From: Topomyia yanbarensis
Lineage: Eukaryota > Arthropoda > Insecta > Diptera > Culicidae
DNA length: 64,000 bases
Assembly: GCF_030247195.1 (NCBI RefSeq)
Contig: NC_080672.1
Span: 185,698,372 to 185,762,371, forward strand
Reading direction: 5' to 3'
Made by a program: the position numbers and the translations under genes. The notes below the pieces were generated by a model that worked only from the letters and a program-made list of their open reading frames with translations, searched no databases and had not been told where the DNA came from. Below, piece after piece: positions 636-15,368 of this stretch (positions are counted from its first letter, which is position 1; every line of letters starts with the position of its first letter).

Positions 636-1941
636 AGTGCTACTTATGGTAAAACTTATGGTAAAACCCCACAACATTTCCTAGAAATCAAATGTTTATT
701 CATTTCATAATGATACATTATTATTAGTACGATTATTTAGAGCATTTGAAGAAAAATTGGATTTACGTTAGTACGCCGAATGTCATATAAATAAACAAAC
801 CATACGACAGCAGCGTTCATATTCGTTAGCTTTTTAAATCACCACATTTTTCAGTACCTATTATTATCGGCCTGTCCTATGATCAACTAGGTGTATTGAA
901 GACGAGTTTGAGAAATTCAATATTTTTAAATGCTTTTATAAAAAATGTGCGCTGTTGGGGTAAAACCGACACCCTGTGGTTAGGGTAAAACCTACACCCT
1001 GTGGTTAGGGTAAAACCGACACGCTGTTAAGATGGTTGTGTATACTTGCGATTCATTTTAAAATACTGGGGATCTTTGTGACACTTCAATTAGCCTATTA
1101 GAACACTATAGTATTAGCAGAAATACACAGAAATACTTTTATTGTGTTTATTTCTTGTAAGTCTCTTTAAAAAAATTGCTTTTCTGTTTCTATAGAAGCT
1201 TTTGCTATTTCTGCAAAAAGCTCATCAAACCGAATTTCTAGTGTTCTCTTGGTTTGTCATAGACGAACTTTATCACAATGAGACAATGATCTTATGTATA
1301 CCCCAATAGATCGTTGATGATCAGAGTCCGAAAAATCAAATCTGAAAAAGATAGTTTTACTAAGAAGTGTGTGTCACTTATAAGTGAATGAATCCAATTA
1401 GCAGAACGTGGAACGCTTGCAAATCTTCTCTTACGAAATAAAATGACACTGGAGGTGGCAATGATGTGCGCAAGGATTATTTGGAAATACTCATATCAAT
1501 AAATAATCCTATAGCATAAAATACTCTTATTTATAGTACTACGCTTTCGAACTTTCTTTCCCTCACTGCATGATGAAGCAATAAAAAGCACATATTTGCA
1601 TTATACATACTCACACTTTATTAATCACGCATATATCTCATTTTTAATAAAGATAAAGATTTTAATAAAGTGGAGAGAAAATAAATTAAAGGGGATGTCG
1701 ATCTTACCCCTATGGGGTGTCGGTTTTACCCGCAGTGCCTACAAAAAGTCACTTTGTTTTCCAAGTTTTACAACCAATAATTTTTAATGAAATTAATTTT
1801 TTGAAGCGCTGAAAAAATTAAGTCTTTTTAAGAATTTTCTGAAGAAGAATTCTGCATAAAAACTATAATTTTATTGGTTTTGTGGCAACTTAGAAAAATT
1901 GTTAAGCTTAAGGTGTCGGTTTTAACCATAATTCCCCTACT
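636..1941 (+). mobile_element. Non-autonomous TA-flanked DNA element (MITE), copy 1
   Basis: The ends carry the motif GGTAAAAC at the left and its inverse, as GTCGGTTTTAACC followed by TTCCCCTAC, at the right. Subterminal copies of GGGTAAAACCGACAC lie near 958-1027 and 1690-1735. The whole stretch matches 27098-28407 read in the opposite direction, including an internal CACTTATAAGTGAATGA-type block and an internal CAACCAATAATTTTTAATGAA block. There is no coding capacity. The related copy is flanked by TA, which fits the Tc1/mariner-pogo superfamily. The left end of this copy is more decayed, so that boundary is good to about 10 bp. Confidence 0.7.
958..1030 (+). repeat. 25 bp subterminal tandem repeats
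   Basis: Two full units and one partial unit of the pattern GGGTAAAACCGACACCCTG plus GTGGTTA stand head to tail. They reproduce the terminal motif of the enclosing MITE, so they may be multiplied transposase-binding sites (inference). Confidence 0.85.
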
Positions 1942-2119
1942 TAATAAGTTGCTCCAGCCATCTTCGGGAGTAGCCACTCCGACCTCATCTTCCGTTGGTA
2001 GTGCCGTATCCAGCTGCTGTGCGTATTTCCGCAGCACAATCGAAGTAAAATTCGGCAAGGGTGAACCTCCAGTATAAAAATCGTTTAAAAATAAATAAAT
2101 CGCTCGTAGGAGCATCCGC
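1942..2119. other. Unassigned DNA between two elements
   Basis: On the minus strand an open frame continues for about 60 codons (residues such as FYTGGSPLPNFTS) up to the poly-A of the next insertion. It may be a remnant of a coding exon or an older element. I could not assign it to a family. Confidence 0.4.
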
Positions 2120-2130
2120 ATATCTTGATT

Positions 2131-2478
2131 TTTTTTATTCAATTCGTTTATTTGATAAGGCACGTTTGCGTTAGCTTAAAGCTGCCATTTTTCATTGTTT
2201 TACATATAGATATAAACTTTCAGTTTCCGGCATCGGGAATCAACGACAAGGGTTACAAATTCGGATGGATGCATCAAGTATTGGGACTCCGGGCGGTCTT
2301 TTTCGAGCCGGCAGGGATTCCTCCAGACGACTTCGTAATACGGCTCAGTTGCGGATCGGCAACACACCGCGTTGCACGTGTGAGGTTGTACTGTAGGTCT
2401 CGTGTTGTTAGGTAATTCGACAGATGTTTTGTCTCGTCTTGGAGTCGCATAAAACCATCGTTGGGGTACGGTAGGCGT
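2131..2478 (-). mobile_element. Short retroposed insertion with poly-A and target duplication
   Basis: The segment is bracketed by the 11 bp direct repeat ATATCTTGATT at 2120-2130 and 2479-2489. The left edge is a T-run, so the poly-A is on the minus strand. It is preceded in minus orientation by a TCAAATAAACGAATTG tail that contains AATAAA. At about 350 bp it is either a SINE or a heavily 5'-truncated LINE. Its 3' tail resembles those of the I-group elements in this window. I found no convincing tRNA-like head. Confidence 0.65.
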
Positions 2479-2489
2479 ATATCTTGATT

Positions 2490-3250
2490 TTCAAGATTAA
2501 AAGTCGGCTAACAAAAACTACTTTGTAAGAATCGGAAGTATTTCTTTCCGGTTTTTTTACTGAGTTTTTTTTACCTGACTCACAAAGGAATGTCCCTTTC
2601 CAATTTTTATATTTGAAGTTTGTATCCGGTTTTTATATTCTAATACATATATTTGAAATTAGTTTTACGAAGCATGTTCCGTTCTTGCGACTTTTATTTT
2701 CGGTCGCTCATATCGGTCATAGAAACGATGCAATTCCGCCTAAAATGCATCTTTCTGGTTCGCCGGTCTCGTTTTGTGTGAGTAATGAATGTTGATGATA
2801 CGGTAGTTGAAGAAACGGGCTTTTGCATACTCTCGCTGCTACTTGATCAAGCGTGGGCGGATCTTGTTCAGCATTATAAAGTCCAACTTGTACATTGTGC
2901 CACCGCTCTGGTAGAATGTGATCGATATCCGCTTTTTCACACATTCTGTCCTGCCAAGCAAAGTTCCTACAATGCTAATACCCCGAAGCTGCGAGTTTGC
3001 AGCTCGTCGTGCAAAATTCGGGCGATCTCCTGGAAACCCAATATTCAATAGCACTCTTTTTTTCATTGCATGACTTGATTGTTCTGATCCGTACGCAAAG
3101 CTATGTTTCCGGGCGGCTTGTTGGACCTGTACAAAACTGCTATCTGGTCGGAAGCTTCTCACTTCACTACAGGAGGCGACGATAGTCCACAGATTAACCG
3201 TTGTGTGTCCCACAAAAAGAAAAACAGGTCGCACTCGAGTACCCAGCAAA
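2490..3250. other. No recognisable gene
   Basis: Minus-strand frames of 75 and 136 codons overlap here (2717-2944, 2839-3249). They lack any motif I know and run through AT-rich, repeat-like sequence. They could be fragments of a decayed element. I do not call a gene. Confidence 0.5.
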
Positions 3251-3534
3251 TTTAAAAGACCATAACTATGGCAAATTTACCCGAATTAGAGCACTTTTGG
3301 ATGTTTTGAGTTTAGGAAATCATCCACTTTTAGAACCTATGAAATTGAACCTGACGGATGCATCTGGTTCCTACTAATCCGGATTTCCGGAGGGATATTC
3401 TAGTACTGGGAAATAATTCGTGAATACTAATAAGATTCTATAGGTATAAAGAATTCTTGGAGTTGTCTCAGAAGGTGCACTATGAAGTGCAGTCTTCTGA
3501 GTCAATCCCAAGAATTTTGATACCCATATTGCCA
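3251..3534. repeat. Dispersed repeat, left half (split by CR1-like element)
   Basis: The right part contains AATTTTGATACCCATATTGC, which recurs at about 43112 and 50080. The left part (about 3251-3420) matches the 43190-43320 block in reverse complement (landmark: CCACTTTTAGAACC against GGTTCTAAAAGTGG). The arrangement is that of a fold-back repeat. The right half of the same repeat resumes after 18160, so the CR1-like element was inserted into it. Confidence 0.65.
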
Positions 3535-3657
3535 GTATTGCATTGCATTCAAGTCGTCGTTACAGTTCGGTCGCGTTTCCATTTGCGCCGCTTAAAGTTT
3601 AACCATGCGTGTTTTAATTTGTATTGTTTTCATTTATCATTGCTGCCTAAGTAAAAC

Positions 3658-4870
3658 ATGCCGTGCGCGATTAATAATTGTACAGTGAGTGACGACAAAC
3701 ATGTGTGGTACTGCCATGGATCATGCGGGAAAAAATTCCACGCTGCATGCGTTGGTGCTCAGAGGAATCATGAGCAAAGGATACTAACATACATGCTGCC
3801 AATATGGTACGAGTGCCAGAAGCGTCTCGTGATGGAGTTAAATTTCGATAAACTGTACAGACAACAACAAGAAGCCATCAACCTCAACAAGCTAGTTATG
3901 GACTCGAATCACAAACTCGCATCCACATTTAGCAACTTCAATGTCTGAGATGGATTTGAATGTATCGAAATGCTTTTAAACGAGTTGAAAGGCGAAATTA
4001 AAACAACTAATCATAATAACGCGGTTGCACATATAGCCAAATCCTCGGAGTTGTGGAATGAGCTGGCTGCTTCCAACAAAACTGGCAAAACTGATGTCGT
4101 TGCCACAAAAAATCACTTAACGTCATTATTCGACATATCGATGAAAGCTACGAAAAACAACATCGCAGCCTATGTCAATGAACTGACCACCGATATGACA
4201 CGCGAGTTGAAACAAATTTGTTCAGAAATTGAAAAGGTCAGCAGCGTGATAACTGACATGGCTAACAACTGTTCGGCACAGAATATGAGTTATGTAAACC
4301 CAACATTCACGGATGATATTATCGATGAGTTAAAGCAAATTTCTAGTTAAAGTTATAGCAAGCGCAGTAAACTCACTGGAACAAAAGACTGTTGCTTCAC
4401 CCACAACAGATTTCTCCCTTAGTTTAGAGATGTCTGAGATGTCCGTCGAGGCAGCCAGTAACTCAGGCTGGCGTTTCCTTGGCAACTCTAAGGTATGGAA
4501 GGCTGATTGGTCCGAATACGACGCACGTAAATTGCGTCGTCTCAATCAACAAAAAGCGGCGGAGAAAGCAAGAATAAAGAAGAAACGGAATAAACAGAGG
4601 CCCGCTAATGCACTTGACACCACCCGTAACAGTAATAATAATACCAAGCGTCGCAAGAATCACGGTTACAAGCACCACACAATTTTCGACAAAATAACGG
4701 ATGTAATTACAACCACAGCAGATTTGCGTACCATGACAACAAACGCCGTGACATCGACAATCTTCCCTTGGATAGAGAGCTACCGGCTGAGGCAAAGAAA
4801 CGTTTTTCGAGGCCACCTTCAACTTCGTTCAGACCTTCCATTGCATTCCAGAGAGGCGATGTTTTAAACC
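3658..4870 (+). pseudogene. CR1-like ORF1 (PHD-finger gag), frameshifted
   Basis: This is the nucleic-acid-binding ORF1 product of the LINE. The first 50 codons hold a Cys/His-rich PHD-like finger (CAINNC, WYCHGSCGKKFHAAC, YEC), followed by a helical, coiled-coil-like stretch of about 200 residues and a basic Lys/Arg-rich region near 4510-4620. A TGA near 3946 and a TAA near 4348 interrupt it, with continuity in the same or shifted frames to about 4870. It compares with the intact 292-residue ORF1 at 45361-46239, which has the same finger type but little sequence identity elsewhere. It is not functional. Confidence 0.65.
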
Positions 4871-5914
4871 CGTGCCCTACCGACCAACCTAGCACCTCAC
4901 ATCGAACAGCTGCTGCCACACATATGTACCCCTCCGGAATTGGCGCCTGTCAGTGTTTTTGCCGCAATCGACGCGCTCATTAGAGCAAGGTAGTAATGAA
5001 TTGACAAATCATGTTGTGCTTCAAGATGAAGAAGAGGTAGAGCTAGGTCTAATTAATTCCCATTCAACTAACACTTCTCCAAAAGAATCTCAGTCAAGAA
5101 CAGAAATCTTGGTCTATTGCCAAAACTTTAACAGCATGAAAAGTGCAGCTAAGATGAATGTGATTCAAAACAAAATATTAGGTTGTCATTACTCCGTAAT
5201 TTTAGCAACTGAGACTAATTGGGACGAAACAGTGAGAAGTGAAGAAGTTTTCGGAAGCAATTACAATGTCTTTAGGGATTACCGTGATTGTCATGTATCT
5301 GGTAAGAAGTCAGGAGGGGGCGCTTTGTTTGCGATTTCAGCAAAACTAAATGCAGAAGTTATCAAAACTATAAAATCAAAAGAATTCGAGCATGTGTGGG
5401 TGAAAGTACATGTTAAAGACGAAACTCACGTTTTCGCTTCGGTGTATTTTCCTCCAAATTTTGCTCGAAAAACGACTTACGAAAAGTTTTATCATGCTGC
5501 TGAATGAATTATTAATAGTCCCCGCACGTAAAAGTTCACATATACGGCGATTTCAATCAACGCGGTATTGATTTCATACCAGATGCTGATAATGAGAGCA
5601 TCCTACTTCCTGTTGTAGGGGAAAATGAAACTTTGCAGTTCATTTGCGATAAATCTGCCAGTTTAGGCCTTAATCAAATAAATCACATAAGAAATCAGCG
5701 GCATTGTTATTTAGATTTATTAATGACGAATATATACGAAGACTTCTGTGTAACGGAATCACTTACTCCCTTGTGGAAGAATGAAGCTTATCATACAGCC
5801 ATTCAGTTTTCTATATTCTTGCATTTTAACGACAGACCTGGTGATAGTGAATTTGAGGAGGTATTTGATTACGAGTCCGCTAACTATGAAAGCTTGAGGC
5901 AAAAAATTAATGCT

Positions 5915-6244: not shown

Positions 6245-9200
6245 TTATATTTGAATATTTATTGATTTCAGGAAATGATAAATATGGCTCATGTATGTAA
6301 GATCTCGTAAAGCGAGGATATCACGAACAGGTACATAGGGTGGTTTTCTTCTGGCTCGTAAGGAGTCTATTAATTGGGATCTGGCTTCACGATATTCAAT
6401 GCAAGACCAAACAACATGTTCAATGTCTTCGTAACCCTCTCCGCAAGCACATTGATTATCTTCTGCGATCCCAATACGGCGGAGATGCGCATTCAACGTA
6501 TAATGGTTGGACATGAGTCTAGACATCACACGAATGAAGTTTCGACTTACATCCAACCCTTTGAACCATGCCTTCGTTGATACTTTAGGGATAATTGAGT
6601 GCAACCACCGTCCCAGATCTCCATTGTCCCATGATGTTTGCCAACTAGTAAGCGTCCTCTGACGAGAAGCGCTATAAAATTCATTGAAGGCAATAGGTCT
6701 TTCATAGATGTCACCGTCCAGCGCCTCTATTTTGGCTAAATTATCCGCTCTCTCATTACCCGGTATGGAGCAATGAGCGGGAATCCACACTAAGGTAATT
6801 TGATAAGATTTATTTGTTAATTTGGTTAAGTATTCTCGTATCTTCTTCAAAAAGAACGGAGCGTGATTATCAAGCTTTAATGAGTGTAGTGCCTTAATTG
6901 TGCTGAGGCTATCTGTGAGGATGAAATAATGGCTCGGAAGTAAAGTATCAATGATTTCCAGACTATGGTGAACTGCTGCTAGTTCGGCTGTGTAAACAGA
7001 GGCAGGTTCTGCAAGCTTGAAAGAGATCGCGGTGTTATGGTTGAAAATACCGAAGCCAGTGCCCTCATTGATTCGTGACCCATCAGTGTAGAACATTTTA
7101 TGGCAGTCAATGTGTTGGTATTTACTTATGAATATTTTAGGGATCTCCACAGAGCGCTGGTGATCCGGGATTCCACGAATTTCCTCTTGCATGGACGTGT
7201 CGAAAAATAAAGTGGAATCGGGAGTATCTAGTATATTAACACATGTCAGAACATAACTAGAAGGCGTTATTTCTTGTGACATGTGATTGAAGTACACTGT
7301 CATGAATCTGGTTTGGGATTGAAGCTCGACAAGTCTTTCGAAATTTTCAATTACAAGTGGATTCATAACCTCACATCGTATAAGTAAACGAGAGGAGAGA
7401 TCCCAGAATCGATCTTTTAAGGGAAGAACTCCCGCTAGAACTTCAAGACTCATCGTATGTGTCGATTGCATGGAACCTAAGGCGATTCGTAAACAACGAT
7501 ACTGTATTCGTTCCAATTTAATAATGTGAGTGTTTGCAGCTGAACGGAAACAGAAGCACCCATATTCCATTACTGAAAGTATCGTTGTTTGATACAATCT
7601 TATCACGTCACTTGGATGAGCACCCCACCAAGATCCGGTTATTGTTCGGAGAAAATTTATCCTTTGTTGGCACTTCTTTATCAGATACCTAATGTGGCCT
7701 CCCCATGTACCTTTAGAATCGAACCAAATTCCGAGATATTTAAAGGTCATGACTTGGGCTATCATTCTACCAACCAACTGAAGCTGAAGCTGAGCTGGAT
7801 CACGCTTCCTTGAAAAAACAACCAACTCTGTTTTCTCCGTAGAGAAATCGATGCCTAACTTCAAAGCCCAACTTGATAAATTATCCAAACTATCTTGCAG
7901 TGGTTGTTGTAAATTTATGGCTTTTGGTCCTGTGACAGAAACCACGCCATCATCTGCAAGTTGCCTTAGAGTGCATGGGCTGACAATACAATTATCAATG
8001 TCATTCACGTAAAAATTGTAGAGAAGGGGGCTTAAACAAGAACCTTGTGGGAGACCCATGTAACTTATTCTGAATGTTGCCAAATCGCCATATGAAAAAT
8101 GCATGTGCTTTTCTGACAATAAGTTGTATAAATAATTATTTAATATTGGTGAAAGACCACATTGATGTAGTTTCTCTGAGAGAACATCAATGGAAACAGA
8201 GTCGAATGCTCCTTTTATGTCTAAGAACACAGACGCCATTTGTTCTTTTTTTGCGTAAGCTAGTTGGATTTCTGACGAAAGTAGCGCCAGACAATCATTC
8301 GTTCCCTTTCCCCTCCGAAAACCAAACTGGGTATCTGAGAGCAAGCCGTTCGCCTCAACCCAATTGTCGAGACGTCGGAGGATAATTTTTTCCAACAATT
8401 TCCTGATGCAGGATAGCATTGCAATCGGTCGATACGAGTTATGGTCGGAGGCTGGTTTTCCCGGTTTTGGAATGGCGATAACTCTCACTTGTCTCCAGTC
8501 GTGCGGGACTATGTTCTGCTCAAGAAGCTTATTGAATAAATTCAACAAGCGTCTTTTTGCTAGGTCAGGCAGATTTTTCACCAAGTTGAATTTAATTCTG
8601 TCTGGACCCGGAGCATTATTGTTGCATGAGAGGAGTGCAATTGAAAATTCCATCATTGTCAAAGGCGAATCTATGGAATCGTTACTTGTGGGAGCATCGC
8701 GAATGATTTTCTGCGCAGGAGCAGAATCTGGACAAACTTTCTTGGCAAAATTAAATATCCAGCGATTCGAAAAATCTTCGCTTTCATTAGTTACGTTTCG
8801 ATTCCTCATTCTTCTGGCTGTGTTCCAAAGAGTACTCATTGATGTTTCTCTTGACAAGCCATCAACGAAACGTCACCAATAACTAGACTTTTTGGCACGA
8901 CGGAGACTGTCAAATTTGTTTTGTAAAATCGAATAATTTTCAAAGTTTGCACGTGTACACCCTTTCCGTTTCATAATTTCTTTGTAAGCAACTTGTTTAG
9001 CTTCATATGCATCCGAGCACTCTTTGTCCCACCAGGGATTAGGAGGCCGGCTGTTCATTATCATGCCAGGATTGCATTTCGTTTGGGTTTGTTCTGCTGC
9101 TTCAATAATCAAATCCGCTAGAAATTCATATTCTTCGGTAGGTGGTAGCTCTTCCGTCGAAACAAGAGAAGTGGAAATTAACGATTGGTATTTTTTCCAA

Positions 9201-9809
9201 TCAATATTTCGTGTCAAGTCATAAGGTACCCAAGTAACCAATAAGCCGTAAAAATGGCACCAATTCGGTTCTATAGGTACATATAGAACAAGGTTAATAG
9301 TGCCTGGAAGAACTATAGTGTACTTTAGTGCTGCCCAAAAGCCACTTTTGGCGATTTATTTAGCTGATATACTGCCTACCCCCATTTATCAACGCGCCCA
9401 TGGATCGAAACGTCAAAACTTTTTCGGTAGCGGCTGCTACCAGCGAAAAAAGAAAAGAACGAAAACGTTTGTTTTGTTTTTCTCTAACCTCCTGGAAAAA
9501 AGTTTTTTTTCTCTTTTGCTCGAGTCAAGTGTCCGTGATTTTCCCATGTGTGTATTTGTCGTCGCTCCGTCAGTCAGCCAAGCAAGTTCGGGAAGTTTTT
9601 TTTTCGTTGGCGTCGGTGTGTAGGAGTCCGGCTCGAACTTGTGACTCATTAGATGATTGTGATTGTGCTCCTCCAGCGCGTTAGCTCCTTGATCCATCTA
9701 GGCGTTGCGTTTCAACTTCGCTGTGAGTCGTTTTAAACCTGATATTGTGAAGTAAGTTTTTTATTTGGAATGGGATAAAAAAAATATTTGTTGTATTTTT
9801 TTTCTAGTT

Positions 9810-10682
9810 ATGTCTGGTACGAAAAAAAGTCAGAAAAAGGCTACGACAGCAGAATTACTTCAAGGGATCCAGCAGCAGAGTACAAGACGCATGCTCTCAG
9901 ATCCGGAAGTAAGGCATGTATGTTCGCAGACGGAAACGGAGGAAACTGTTGCGGCTCACGAGAGCTTGGAGAATAAATTGAACAAGTGCTTATTGTTGCT
10001 AGCACACTTAAATACTAAGTTCGATGCATTTGCTTCAATGCAATGTCAACCAGTGAAAACATCTCCCAGCGTTACGCTAAGTAAAATAAATTTGCAACCT
10101 GTAAACAGTTACGCCGATCTCGAACGTTTGGAGGAAAATTGTCGTGATGAAAATTTTTTGAAAACAACGGTTGAATCAATAGGCAGAATCCACGGTCATC
10201 ACCGATTTCCTGGCCAAGGCACAACAGTATGCCTTCAAATAATTGACTACTTTTTCACTCGTAGTTTTCTACTAAAATGTTCATGGACAGGAACTGGACG
10301 CGCTTCTGGTAAGCATGATCCTAAGAAGCATAAAATTCCTTTTATGAAGTTTGACAGAACAATCGACTTATTCTATCAAACGGTACTTTATTCGGACGCA
10401 ACATATACAAAAACCGACTGTAACAGTTTTTTACATCGGTGTTTAAAAAATGCGAAGCAAAGATTCGAGGAAGTGGCCGGAATCAGAAAACCAGTTTCAC
10501 GTAAGCGAAAGCGTATTATACCTGGCGATCGTCTTAGCACAGAAGAACACGAGAATGACAGTAACACCAATGAAATAATCGATGAAAAACTAACGGAAGA
10601 AGCTGCTGAAAATACATCATGCACTACAAATTGGACGATCGAGTATTTGGAGATGAACGAAGATATTCCAAGGGATGATTGA
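9810..10682 (+). CDS. DUF4806-like protein of the DNA transposon
   Basis: A 290-residue protein. I chose the ATG at 9810 because it lies two bases behind a splice acceptor (TTTTTTTCTAG, ending at 9807). The preceding donor GTAAGT starts at 9752, so a 5'UTR exon is joined through a 56 bp intron. The N-terminal third is Lys/Gln-rich and likely disordered. The middle (about residues 100-225) resembles the DUF4806 domain: VNSYADLERLEENCRDENF, then a region with FFTRSFLLKCSWTGTGR and KHKIPFMKF. The C-terminus has a basic KRKRI patch, a possible nuclear signal, followed by an acidic tail. Function unknown. Its place inside a transposon opposite the transposase suggests an accessory or DNA-binding role (inference). 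AATAAA at 10759 is its likely poly-A signal. Confidence 0.7.
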   Translation: MSGTKKSQKKATTAELLQGIQQQSTRRMLSDPEVRHVCSQTETEETVAAHESLENKLNKCLLLLAHLNTKFDAFASMQCQPVKTSPSVTLSKINLQPVNSYADLERLEENCRDENFLKTTVESIGRIHGHHRFPGQGTTVCLQIIDYFFTRSFLLKCSWTGTGRASGKHDPKKHKIPFMKFDRTIDLFYQTVLYSDATYTKTDCNSFLHRCLKNAKQRFEEVAGIRKPVSRKRKRIIPGDRLSTEEHENDSNTNEIIDEKLTEEAAENTSCTTNWTIEYLEMNEDIPRDD

Positions 10683-10758
10683 AATCAAAGTGTAAACCGT
10701 TGAGTGCGGGAAATTGAGAGACTGTATCACACTGTACCGTCAAAAATATGATCTCTTG

Positions 10759-10797
10759 AATAAATCCGAATATTGAAACAAATTTTGCATTTTTATT
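10759..10797. terminator. Convergent poly-A signals of the two transposon genes
   Basis: The plus-strand AATAAA at 10759-10764 serves the DUF4806-like gene. The minus-strand AATAAA at 10797-10792 serves the transposase. They lie 28 bp apart, so the two transcripts likely overlap at their 3' ends. Confidence 0.7.
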
Positions 10798-10808
10798 TAC
10801 AGCATATC

Positions 10809-12975
10809 TTATTTCCCTGGTAATGTGTGATGAAGTGGTACAAAAACAGTTTCTCCGTTAATTTGTATAGCGACTAATTTGCAAAATATATCATCAAAAG
10901 CGTAAACCTTGCTTGGATTAAAATCATGGTCTGAGATTGTTTTAAAAACATACAAAATATTCGATGGAAATGGACGTTGAATGAGAGCTTCAGAATGCTT
11001 AAGTTCAGAACCATTTATACCGCTATGGTACGCAAAATTCATCGCAATAATTTTTCTTTCCTTTGAAAGGAACCATTTATCCTGAAAATTATTTTTCAAC
11101 GTGAACCCATCGTGTATTATGCAGCACATAAAGATTGCTTGATCGTTTTTTGCAGGTTGTTTCATAATAGGATATGTTTGATTGACTTGGCTTTTACAAA
11201 GATGATACTGATGCGTTTCCGAAATCCTGTTGATTATTTGATTTAGCGGTAATCTTCCAGACCGTACCATGTTTTTTATTTGGTATAAAAAATTTTCAAA
11301 TGGATATGACGATATTGTAGGCAATGGACCAAATTTTATCACCTCATCTACAATATGAACAAGATTGTGTGTGTTACTAGAAATTATGTGAAAAAAACTA
11401 TTGTAATTTTCTATAAATGTTTCGAAAAGATTCTGAGCAACAGGAAGATATTTCTTATGGTGTTCACTTGAACAAATCGTTACGGCATAAAACAAATTAA
11501 TAAAATTTTCGTAATGTTGTTCGTTAATAAAATTTTTGAGAAGCGCTATTCCGATATAGTTCAAAAATGAAGCGCATTCTGATGCCTTCCAATGACATAG
11601 AAAACGTAATCCCCGTACTTTACGATGTATTTCCAATGGCAACATTATATTGCTTAAAATGCTGTCTATTCTTTCGGTACTAGATTTTGGCCACTTAACA
11701 TGGTGCTTTTGACCTTCCTTATAAATAGTCAGCAGCTTTTTCATAACTCCTAGATGCAACAGATGCAGCGAATCTGACACTATAATATCTTCAACCATAT
11801 CAATAGGCAGACGCAGTAGAGGTGTTTCGACGAATATCTTTTTAAATTTTCCACCTTCTCTGATTTTGTAAATCTGATGATGTTCACCATATGACCGGCT
11901 ACGGTACCCTTCATCTGTTCGCTTTGAGGCCTTCGTTACAGGAAATACATTCACGTGTAGATCGTTGGAACGTTCTCCAACAATACTGCATTTAAGACAA
12001 CCATGAAACGAATTGAAATTCACTGATCCTGTAAATGGTACATAAGATAATAGACAAAATTATAACATTGAATTAAATTATCTTTAATAAATGCCCTCGC
12101 GGGGGAGTCACAGATCAATGCTCTTATTTTGACTGATAGTATTTTGTTGTTGATAGTGACCCCGAATTTCAAAATATATTCAGCTTCATCCACAAAAGGC
12201 TTTAAGAATTCCTCAATAAATTTTGGTTTGGTCTTGCCGTGAAATATGCCTATGATCATTGGTTTCATTTCCGGAAATTCGAATATGTTAATCAAAATTG
12301 GCCATACTTGATCGGTACCGTTTTTGAAAAGCGGTAATCCATCAATATTTATATTTATAGATATTGATCGAGACTCACTGAGGTCCCAAAATACTCGCCG
12401 AAGACATGCATCTGTAAAGAAATTATAAACTTTGGCAAGGCTTCAACGCAATACAAATGCAATATTTTACCTAATCCCTGATGCCAATATTGTCCACCTT
12501 CGAAATTGAGCAAATCAGGTTCTTTACGAGAGGTTCCCAGCAATCTTCGCGGATCTGTGGGAAGTGATCGGTTATAACAACATAGTCGATTTAGTAGTGG
12601 TTTTAGTGCAGAGTGTGGAATTCGATGTTCAATGCTCCAAAGTTGAAGGAATGTGGCTAAACTCGTAGTATTATCTTCTTCGGAATCTGTTCCTTCATCA
12701 GGACTGTAGTCGATGCACACTTCAACGTCAGAATCTAGATCAGAACTGTAGTTGGGAGGATCATCCTTATTTGCCGGATCCACACAAACATTTAGTCGAC
12801 TTTCAGCTGTGCTATACGCTTCATAATTTCTTTTGCAGCTGTAACTGGATTGCAGTGCAAAACTTTTGCTAGACGATGGATTGCAATCATTATTCGAATA
12901 TTGCTTGTACTTGACCAACTTTCGCCGGTAAGTTCCGCTTTTAAGAAATTTTTGCCAGATTTCACTTCCATCCAT
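10809..12975 (-). CDS. TNP2/CACTA-like transposase, three exons, no internal stop
   Basis: Exons on the minus strand: 12975-12471, 12411-12067 and 12022-10809. The two introns (59 and 44 bp) have GT/AG borders and restore one frame of 687 residues. Exon 1 carries a basic N-terminus and an acidic, Ser-rich linker, then RLLGTSRK and GGQYWHQGL. Exon 2 holds INIDGLPLFKNGTDQVWPIL, a conserved core with an Asp followed by the LPLFK box, and the CDSPARAF box with a second Asp. Exon 3 holds a CLKCSIVGE finger, a RTDEGY box, LLRLPIDMVEDIIVSDSLHL, LLHLGVMKKL, WKASECASFL, HNLVHIVDEV, and FENFLYQIKNMVRSG. These boxes occur in the same order in the TNP2-like transposases widespread in insects and cnidarians (family knowledge). 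The proposed catalytic role is cutting and joining of the CCAA ends. AATAAA at 10797-10792 follows the stop. The intron positions are inferred; the rest is read directly. Confidence 0.8.
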
Positions 12976-13064
12976 TTTGAATTTTACTTTGATTTGTTTT
13001 TAAGATATTAGAATTATGGAAAAGTCATTTATCACATGCCTTAAAACGGCTACGTTTATTACCG

Positions 13065-13254
13065 GTATCGGGCTTATAGCCACCGGGCTTACAGGCTCTA
13101 TATTATAGTTTCATATACCCATATACGGCTTAGTTTACTGCTTGTTGTCATTAAAGCTTATAAACATTAGAAACGCTTATATAAAGCCTATAGACATTAG
13201 AAAGCCATTATATAGTGAATATAAAGCTTACTTTAGTGCTTAGTGGTTTGTTGG
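13065..13254. repeat. Subterminal GCTTA-rich repeats at the transposon's right end
   Basis: About eight copies of a GCTTA/GCCTA motif occur within 190 bp (for example GGGCTTATAG, CGGCTTAG, AAAGCTTATAAAC, ACGCTTATAT). They include two tandem 30-31 bp units at 13153-13213 built around ACATTAGAAA. Arrays of short subterminal motifs are typical transposase-binding sites in CACTA-type elements. Binding here is inferred. Confidence 0.65.
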
Positions 13255-13958
13255 GTACATTGATTGAATTCGTGAGGCCTAATTCACTGTTAATTGAAAT
13301 AACGACTGGCAAATGATCGCTACCGTGAGGATCAGGTACAACCTTCCACGTGCAATCTAACCGAAGTGATGTCGAGCATAGAGATAGATCTAATGCACTT
13401 GGTCGTGCGGGTGGTCTGGGAATGCGTGTTGCTTCGCCTGTATTTAAAACTGTCATATTGAGCTCGTCACAAACATTGTAAATCAAAGAGGATCGATTAT
13501 CATTGAAGAGGGAACCCCACAATACTCCGTGCGAGTTGAAGTCTCCCAGTATCAGCCGCGGAGCAGCCATGGATTCCACTACCTCAAAAATCTGACGTTG
13601 TCCAATTTGAGCTTTGGGAGGTATATATATAGAAGCGATAGACATGTCTTTGCCTTTAATATTCGTTTGGACAGCTACAGCCTCAATGCCCGCAAACAAG
13701 GGGATGTTAGTTCTATAGAAAGGATAGCACTTTTTAATTCCTAGAAGCACTCCTCCATATGGGGTGTCTCGGTCTAGGCGAATAATGTTGAAATCATTCA
13801 AGTTGAAATTAATGTTTGAGGTAAGCCATGTTTCACATAAAGCAAAAGCATCGCATTTCAAATTATGCAGCAAAATTTTTAAGGAGTCAATTTTAGGTAT
13901 GATACTTCTGCAATTCCACTGTAAAACAGTGATGGAATCTTTCATTGGAGGAGGTGAA

Positions 13959-15287
13959 TTACCCATTGAAAGATACAATCGCTGCAAGGATGGGCCATTG
14001 AGCAATCAGCTGCTCTAAAAATGTTCTAATTGTTGGGAGGAACGCTGAAAGTATACTTTTTAGTGGTTCAGAAATATTGAATGCTTTGAAAATCCAATCA
14101 ACAATTTCAGAAAATTTCAATAAACCTATCCCCGGTTGAGGCTCGGAGGAATTTGAAGTTTTATTATTTCCAGTAATGGTGTTCTGTTTGGATTGTACAT
14201 TACCAAAACCGGGAGGGACTGGCTTCGGTATTGCATCGGAATTCTTTTGCTTTGGCCGCAATTTATTTGTTGGAGGAGAAATTTTAAGGCCCTTGCTTGG
14301 CAGTTTGGGAAAAGAGGATTGTTTTCTTTTCCTGGATCCTCTAGGTAAAACAAATGATGTACCTTCGGACGCTTCGTCAGAGTCAGACTCTTTCGGCAAT
14401 AGAATAGCGTATCTGTTTTCTGGGACCGTGGGTTCAGGAGTAGCATTTTTCAGTATTTCTGCATAAGAGCGCTTAGATCTCTCCTTCAAGGATCGTTTAA
14501 TTTTCTCCTCCCGCATTTTATATATGGGACATGCAAGGAGCTCGTGTGAAGTTTCTCCGCAATGTAAACATTTTTCTAAGTTTTTATTGCATGTATCCTC
14601 TTGATGAGGCCCCCCACATTTGCCACACCGTACCTTATTGGAACAGTAAGTGGCTGTGTGGCCAAGCTGTTTACAATTGAGGCAATTCATCACACGAGGG
14701 ATGAAAAGGCGAACGGGGAGACGAATTTTATTAATGAGAACATGGCTAGGCAAAGCAGACCCAGCGAAAGTTACACGAAATGAATAGGATGGTCGGTAAA
14801 CTTTTTTCTCTTCTTCAATTGATACTGAGTACAATTGCTTAACATCGAGTATTTTTACTTTATTAAGCAGGGTGTTCTTGAAACAACCAACACCATGCTT
14901 AAGTATATCCTCGGCAGTGAGGCTGGGTTCGGAGATGACTCCATCGCATTCTATATCGCGCGAAAGTATATAAACTTTATATTCGCGCGTGAAGAGTTCG
15001 CATGCTACTATCTCGTTAGCTTGTCTAATGTTATCAATGCTAACTCGAAGTTTATCTTTATTTACTTTCACGATCTCTGTTACAGCAGAAAATCGTGAAG
15101 TCAGATCCCGTGCAATTTGCACAAGGTTTAATGGCTTTCCTTTCCGCCTGAAGAAAACCTGCCAAGGTCCAGAAGACCCTTGGGGGTATAATTTTATTCT
15201 AAGGGGAGTTGAGGGAGGGGGATCAGAAGAGTTTTGCTCTTGTGAAATGGAGGATTCCATCTCACTATCCTCCATCTCGCCTACCAT
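13959..15287 (-). CDS. I-group ORF1 (gag-like RNA-binding protein), intact
   Basis: A 442-residue protein that would coat the element's RNA. The start at 15287 gives MVGEMEDSEM; a second Met four codons on is also possible. The N-terminal 180 residues (RIKLYPQGSSGPWQVFFRRK and following, with VNKDKLRVS) fit the RRM-like fold common in I-group and R1-group gags (inference). Three zinc knuckles follow at about residues 215-265: CLNCKQLGHTATYC, CGKCGGPHQEDTC and CLHCGETSHELLAC. The rest is a basic, Ser/Lys/Pro-rich tail. There is no internal stop. Its end overlaps the ORF2 start. Copy 2 has the same protein with frameshifts and about two thirds identity, so the two copies belong to related subfamilies. 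Confidence 0.88.
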   Translation of the reverse strand: MVGEMEDSEMESSISQEQNSSDPPPSTPLRIKLYPQGSSGPWQVFFRRKGKPLNLVQIARDLTSRFSAVTEIVKVNKDKLRVSIDNIRQANEIVACELFTREYKVYILSRDIECDGVISEPSLTAEDILKHGVGCFKNTLLNKVKILDVKQLYSVSIEEEKKVYRPSYSFRVTFAGSALPSHVLINKIRLPVRLFIPRVMNCLNCKQLGHTATYCSNKVRCGKCGGPHQEDTCNKNLEKCLHCGETSHELLACPIYKMREEKIKRSLKERSKRSYAEILKNATPEPTVPENRYAILLPKESDSDEASEGTSFVLPRGSRKRKQSSFPKLPSKGLKISPPTNKLRPKQKNSDAIPKPVPPGFGNVQSKQNTITGNNKTSNSSEPQPGIGLLKFSEIVDWIFKAFNISEPLKSILSAFLPTIRTFLEQLIAQWPILAAIVSFNG

Positions 15288-15368
15288 ACACAGTAAGTAA
15301 ATTAAATACTAACACTAGCAAAATTATATTAAAATCTACCTGTCCTTCGAAGAGTTGCAGATTCTCGC

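What the first reader, a model, noticed from the sequence alone, without database searches (positions are those of the whole stretch)
9230..13254. A complete two-gene DNA transposon: uninterrupted TNP2-like transposase plus a convergent DUF4806-like gene
The element is delimited exactly by the LINE reading frame it interrupts. It has inverted repeats starting CCAA, a 4 bp GTAC target duplication, an apparently intact three-exon transposase of 687 residues and a second intact gene of 290 residues on the other strand. CACTA/TNP2 elements usually start with CACTA and make 2-3 bp duplications, so termini and target size are unusual. The pairing with a DUF4806-like protein suggests that this protein family, often annotated as host 'uncharacterized', is a transposon accessory factor. 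This is the best candidate for an under-described system in the window.
Basis: partly seen in the sequence, partly recalled or inferred. Interest (0 to 1): 0.82.

Follow-up and report, generated by a model that had tools for sequence, protein, structure and literature searches.

The report
Two-gene CACTA-type mosquito transposon
This is a recently inserted DNA transposon in a mosquito genome whose cut-and-paste enzyme is paired, tail to tail, with a gene for a DNA-binding-type protein (DUF4806) usually filed as an unknown host gene; the same pairing recurs in several divergent transposons of this genome, so these proteins look like transposon parts.

Summary
The element is real, sits in a LINE of a mosquito genome (matches Topomyia yanbarensis), and 40 of 40 scored LINE copies match the empty site. 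Two details are wrong. (1) Other copies show it is one base longer at each end (9229-13255, CCCAAGTAACC...GGTTTGTTGGG) with a 2-bp duplication (TA); 'GTAC' is coincidence. CCC ends and 2-bp duplications are the published signature of animal TRC elements of the CACTA superfamily, so the ends are ordinary. (2) The transposase frame is open, but this copy's intron-2 donor is AT where five other copies have GT, so it is probably not intact. The main idea is strongly supported: of 47 DUF4806 matches in the genome, 35 have a TNP2-like transposase beside them in convergent orientation (about 0.05 expected by chance within 10 kb), in at least eight divergent families, and the two proteins' distances correlate (r 0.83, 10 pairs). 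The DUF4806 model resembles BEN DNA-binding domains (already stated in print). A homologous transposase's model resembles RAG1/Transib plus a C-terminal BAH-like domain. Inferred function: DUF4806 protein binds subterminal repeats (TAAGC array) and assists or regulates transposition, as TNPA does in maize Spm.

The parts
9229..13255 (.). Whole element, TRC-type CACTA transposon, corrected ends CCC...GGG (reader: 9230-13254)
   Evidence: Shared ends of other copies; empty site in 40 of 40 scored LINE copies
9227..9228 (.). Left copy of the 2-bp target duplication (TA)
13256..13257 (.). Right copy of the 2-bp target duplication (TA)
9229..9246 (+). Left terminal inverted repeat CCCAAGTAACCAATAAGC
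13238..13255 (-). Right terminal inverted repeat, read inward CCCAACAAACCACTAAGC (imperfect)
9752..9807 (+). Possible 5'UTR intron of the DUF4806 gene (GT...AG by eye; untested)
   Evidence: sequence only
9810..10682 (+). DUF4806 gene, 290 residues: helix 45-78, BEN-like domain about 95-223, basic stretch near 226-238
   Evidence: PF16064 E 4.1e-12; model; BEN domains top fold matches
12471..12975 (-). Transposase exon 1
12082..12411 (-). Transposase exon 2 (catalytic D192 and D270)
12029..12081 (-). Intron 2; begins AT in this copy, GT in the five other aligned copies
10809..12028 (-). Transposase exon 3 with stop (C(2)C motif, catalytic E523, C-terminal domain that is BAH-like in the homologue's model)
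   Evidence: homologue model
10813..11109 (.). Segment missing in three other copies (L011 and both of L012): transposase residues about 585-684
13072..13242 (-). Subterminal array: TAAGC seven times, all in one orientation

Best explanation
A TRC-type (animal CACTA/EnSpm) cut-and-paste transposon with two convergent genes. Shown here by sequence: CCC..GGG ends, mostly clean 2-bp target duplications, a three-exon DDE transposase gene, and a second gene on the other strand for a DUF4806 protein; and, across this genome, the same tail-to-tail pairing in at least eight divergent families whose two proteins have diverged together, so it is an old architecture and not a one-off capture. Shown at model level: the DUF4806 core has a BEN-like fold, and a homologous transposase has a RAG1/Transib-like core plus a C-terminal BAH-like domain. 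Inferred: the DUF4806 protein binds family-specific subterminal repeats (the TAAGC array here), possibly as an oligomer through its long helix, and so helps the transposase recognise or pair the ends and/or regulates the element, as TNPA does beside TNPD in maize Spm (recalled). The BAH-like domain may tie the transposase to chromatin (inferred, weaker).
Confidence: 0.7

Rival explanations
1. The DUF4806 protein is mainly a self-regulator: it binds the element's own promoter or ends and represses or times transposase expression, rather than taking part in the transposition complex.
For: A BEN-like DNA-binding-type domain fits a repressor as well as a synapsis factor. In the three deletion copies the DUF4806 frame stays full length while the transposase is truncated, with DUF4806 dN/dS 0.34-0.46 against 0.85-1.43 for the transposase, on small counts.
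Against: Nothing here separates repression from assistance; TNPA in Spm does both (recalled).
Confidence: 0.15
2. The DUF4806 protein mainly acts on host chromatin or silencing (anti-silencing or targeting), in concert with the BAH-like domain of the transposase.
For: Other transposons of the same large clade carry chromatin-acting genes, e.g. TET/JBP in fungal elements (PMC12730594, passages); BAH-like transposase end in a homologue's model.
Against: No direct evidence; only a DNA-binding-type domain and a long helix are recognisable.
Confidence: 0.09
3. A captured host gene or passenger with no role in the element's life cycle; the adjacency reflects a chance capture spread by copying.
For: Some DUF4806 matches stand without a detected transposase (11 of 47), including the best-scoring one.
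Against: Convergent pairing in at least eight divergent families, matrix correlation 0.69-0.88 and purifying selection do not fit a recent passenger.
Confidence: 0.05

Closest known systems
TRC elements, animal branch of the CACTA/EnSpm superfamily (SmTRC1; Aedes aegypti and Tribolium TRC; DeMarco et al. 2006, PMC1636069, abstract and passages)
   Same: CCC ends, 2-bp duplications, Transposase_21-related transposase, presence in mosquitoes
   Different: The passages I saw describe alternative splice products and a second ORF in one clone, not a convergent DUF4806 gene
Spongebob, Hydra CACTA element (PMC4298943, passages)
   Same: TIR CCCAGCCAAC..., 2-bp duplication, placed in TRC
   Different: No transposase could be read there; no second gene mentioned in the passages seen
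Plant CACTA element En/Spm with TNPA and TNPD (recalled; partly in PMC1636069 passages)
   Same: DDE transposase plus a second protein; subterminal repeat arrays
   Different: In Spm the proteins come from one transcription unit by splicing; here two convergent genes, and the partner is of BEN type
ProtoRAG (PMC8289069, passage)
   Same: RAG1-like catalytic protein with a second gene tail to tail, inside TIRs
   Different: 5-bp duplications; partner is RAG2-like, not BEN-type; no homology of the partners shown
DUF4806 as a BEN subtype (Pan et al. 2023 as cited in PMC11075544, passage)
   Same: Same Pfam family and BEN-like fold
   Different: There for zebrafish genes annotated as host; no transposon pairing in the passage I saw; the 2023 paper itself was not available here

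Membership tests
TRC group, CACTA superfamily | TIR beginning CCC | tested here: met
   CCC ends in the window family and in L029, L033/L034 (both ends) and L041 (both ends, by pattern)
TRC group, CACTA superfamily | 2-bp target duplication | tested here: met
   12 of 18 insertions perfect, 6 not
TRC group, CACTA superfamily | Transposase_21 (PF02992) domain | tested here: inconclusive
   E 8.6e-4, below the curated cut-off, for the window protein; 14 of 33 relatives match at E <= 10, best 8e-9
TRC group, CACTA superfamily | L/V/I-D-X-L/M-H-X3-L-G motif of animal TRC transposases | tested here: inconclusive
   Window protein has SDSLHLLHLG at 363: fits from D onward, first position is S
CMC/CMCT clade DDE transposases | DDE triad and C(2)C motif | tested here: met
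   D192, D270, E523 and GCLKC at 288 in the window protein; conserved in A3; RAG1-like core in homologue model
CMC/CMCT clade DDE transposases | H(3-4)H motif | not tested
   Only the DSLH histidine was counted
DUF4806 (PF16064) | Match above Pfam's curated cut-off | tested here: met
   46.7 bits against 25; 24 of 24 relatives match
BEN domain (PF10523 / fold) | BEN sequence profile above cut-off | tested here: not met
   Window protein has no BEN match; 6 of 24 relatives match weakly, the one shown at 15 bits against a cut-off of 23.2
BEN domain (PF10523 / fold) | BEN fold | tested here: inconclusive
BAH domain (transposase C-terminus) | BAH fold | tested here: inconclusive
Spm-like two-component system (TNPA/TNPD) | Second protein binds subterminal repeats | not testable with these tools
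   Only the repeat array was tested
ProtoRAG / RAG transposon | RAG2-like partner and 5-bp duplication | tested here: not met
   Partner is DUF4806; duplication is 2 bp

The most novel reading that the evidence does not exclude
DUF4806 as a metazoan family is at root a transposon-borne BEN lineage: the second, tail-to-tail gene of TRC/CACTA elements whose RAG1-like transposase carries a BAH-like reader. Its lineage-specific 'expansions' in insects, Hydra and fish would then be transposon bursts, and some BEN-type regulators would be domesticated transposon end-binding proteins, a parallel to the RAG1/RAG2 story.
Probability: 0.3. Interest if true: 0.8.

Novelty: new variant of a known kind. 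Interest (0 to 1): 0.55.

Why it matters
DUF4806 genes appear as host genes in genome papers: in a differentiation/selection table for Anopheles (PMC11445403), as an enriched family 'for future functional characterisation' in a beetle (PMC13270666), and in a domain-count table with 69 and 54 copies in two Hydra species against 0-6 in the others (PMC7642931) (passages only). If they are transposon genes, such lists need re-reading. The pairing also gives animal CACTA elements a candidate TNPA-like partner with a recognisable DNA-binding-type fold, which makes the question of how these elements recognise their ends directly testable. The tail-to-tail pairing with a RAG1-like enzyme is an independent comparison for ProtoRAG.

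Tried and rejected
4-bp GTAC duplication: rejected from the ends of other copies. Intron 2 with a GT donor in the window copy: the four GT donors tried all run into a stop by residue 289. Canonical BEN genes as partners of transposase loci lacking DUF4806: only two BEN matches, not near any transposase locus by coordinates. Rfam: nothing at gathering scores in 9000-13500. PDB sequence searches with the DUF4806 protein and with its alignment: no match. Viral-contig scans with both alignments: pattern matches but no relatives. A second DUF4806 protein search with alignment A1 returned 18 proteins, 6 of them new. A Sipha flava protein named 'DUF4806 domain-containing' in UniRef turned out to be a transposase homologue without a DUF4806 match, so it is no evidence of fusion. 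An excess of CTATA at the left end was post hoc and the left end failed the unbiased test. Four head-to-head copy pairs (coordinates) all have the DUF4806 ends inward; 4 of 4 is not significant for two polarities.

Literature (open-licence PubMed Central library only): 'DUF4806' 4 papers; in the passages read none links it to a transposon. BEN domain+CACTA+transposase: 1 paper, its BEN mention is in the reference list. BAH domain+transposase+CACTA: 0. BEN domain+DNA transposon: 2. Bromo-adjacent homology+DNA transposon+transposase: 3, listing only. Four of CACTA, accessory protein, subterminal repeat, TNPA, animal: 0. Repbase and subscription papers could not be searched.

Full report
WHERE IT LIES. 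The window is on contig 3 (428,584,394 bp) of a 1.17-Gb genome. A 99% match to the 290-residue protein, LOC131688326 of Topomyia yanbarensis, lies on a contig of that same length; this is a sabethine mosquito. Its residue differences fit the second full-length copy, L009, not the window copy.

OBSERVATION. The element interrupts a LINE. 150 bp of each flank joined with a single TA match 40 of 40 scored LINE copies end to end at 99% (2347 candidates, 40 scored). The genome holds one more full-length copy at 99%, one split by a 3.2-kb insertion, three copies sharing a 297-bp deletion, older and partial copies, and roughly 1-kb relatives that share only the end regions at 73-83%. Six aligned copies differ pairwise by 0.13-1.31%.

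ENDS. The base before CCAA is C in 13 of 14 listed 5' ends and the base after the 3' end is G in 13 of 13, so they belong to the element: 9229-13255. Duplications are then 2 bp, perfect in 12 of 18 insertions with both ends seen, in five groups (window family, the 1-kb relatives, L029, L033, L041), imperfect in 6. L018+L031 is taken as one split element and the L041 ends rest on a pattern match; both are inferences. Related starts (CCCAAGTAAC or CCCAGGTAAC) are seen in L029, L033/L034, L035 and L037. DeMarco et al. 2006 (PMC1636069; abstract and passages) report CCC ends and 2-bp duplications for animal TRC elements, with an Aedes aegypti example starting CCCAGTCAAC; PMC4298943 (passages) reports the same for a Hydra element.

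GENES. The DUF4806 ORF is full length in 5 of 6 copies. The transposase frame is open over three exons, but intron 2 starts AT in the window copy and GT in the five others. L009 stops after residue 653, L010 is frameshifted, L011 and both L012 copies lack about the last 100 residues, with further frame damage in L012. So none of the 6 copies has an undamaged transposase; whether the AT donor is used is unknown. The two stop codons are 126 bp apart and each strand has an AATAAA in the gap. dN/dS of DUF4806 between window and L017 is 0.23 with dS 1.09.

PAIRING. PF16064 has 47 matches in the genome, canonical BEN only 2. A homologous transposase, P0040, gives 87 matches, grouped into 59 loci; a lower bound, as 65 of 349 candidates were scored. 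Of the 47, 29 have a transposase within 10 kb: 28 convergent, 1 not (a 32-position fragment); 23 of the 28 lie 229-816 bp apart; expected under uniform placement 0.05. Seven more have a convergent partner in fetched DNA (L036, L038, L042; L010, both L012 copies, L013). Total 35 of 47 convergent, 1 other, 11 without a detected partner: 5 with DNA fetched (L017, L030, L032, L039, L044) and 6 judged by coordinates only. 30 of 59 transposase loci have no DUF4806 match. The pairs are not independent: 8 of the 35 are the window's family and several others are duplicates. Among eight families with DNA in hand (window, L029, L033, L035, L037, L038, L040, L041) protein p-distances run 0.36-0.78 for DUF4806 and 0.28-0.66 for the transposase, and with two pairs from other species (assigned by equal contig lengths) the matrices correlate at r 0.83 (10 pairs, P 5e-5, the floor of 20,000 permutations); dropping more pairs gives 0.81 (9) and 0.69 (8, P 0.002).

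SUBTERMINAL REPEATS. TAAGC occurs 7 times, all one way, in the right 250 bp; 0 of 500 shuffles reach 7 for any 5-mer. L034's left end has TAAAAC five times (0 of 500). The other 10 of 12 tests are not significant. Four 1-kb relatives have 5-8 TAAGC, all one way. Against eight relatives, identity is 0.77-0.86 inside the motif and 0.54-0.74 outside; these relatives are not independent, and L020 shows almost no difference (0.77 against 0.74).

READING. A two-gene TRC/CACTA transposon. Ends, pairing and co-divergence are shown; DNA binding by DUF4806 and its part in transposition are inferred from fold, repeat array and analogy to TNPA. The tail-to-tail layout with a RAG1-like enzyme recalls ProtoRAG (PMC8289069, passage); whether more than analogy is unknown.

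Noticed in passing
L012 (C3:350252000-350260100): Two 99.9% identical copies head to head, 38 bp apart by the corrected ends, with 2-bp duplications swapped between them, as expected if the spacer was inverted by recombination or aberrant transposition.
   Followed up: partly
C2:258204246/258207741, C2:270534961/270538174, C2:280531700/280534972, C3:350254881/350256940: Four inverted pairs of DUF4806 elements, each with the DUF4806 ends inward; local hopping or assembly effects not separated. In L029 both copies have TA duplications.
   Followed up: partly
L011 and L012: A 297-bp deletion derivative lacking the transposase C-terminus has spread to separate sites, so it was mobilised in trans or the domain is dispensable.
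   Followed up: partly
L010 positions 1907-5121: A 3,215-bp insertion with CAGGC ends and an 8-bp duplication (TTCTCCGT), hAT-like, between the two genes of one copy; no long ORF.
   Followed up: partly
L021-L028: Short (about 1 kb) elements with CCCAAGTAACCACTAAGC ends and an enlarged repeat array containing AATGTTTATAAGC; no DUF4806 or transposase match. Probably non-autonomous relatives.
   Followed up: partly
G000 C2:430526459-430526704: Best-scoring DUF4806 match in the genome has no transposase match within 10 kb; possible domesticated gene or undetected partner.
   Followed up: no
window 8873-9228 and 13256-15308: The interrupted LINE is very numerous: 2347 candidates at the insertion site, the 40 scored all 99% identical.
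   Followed up: no
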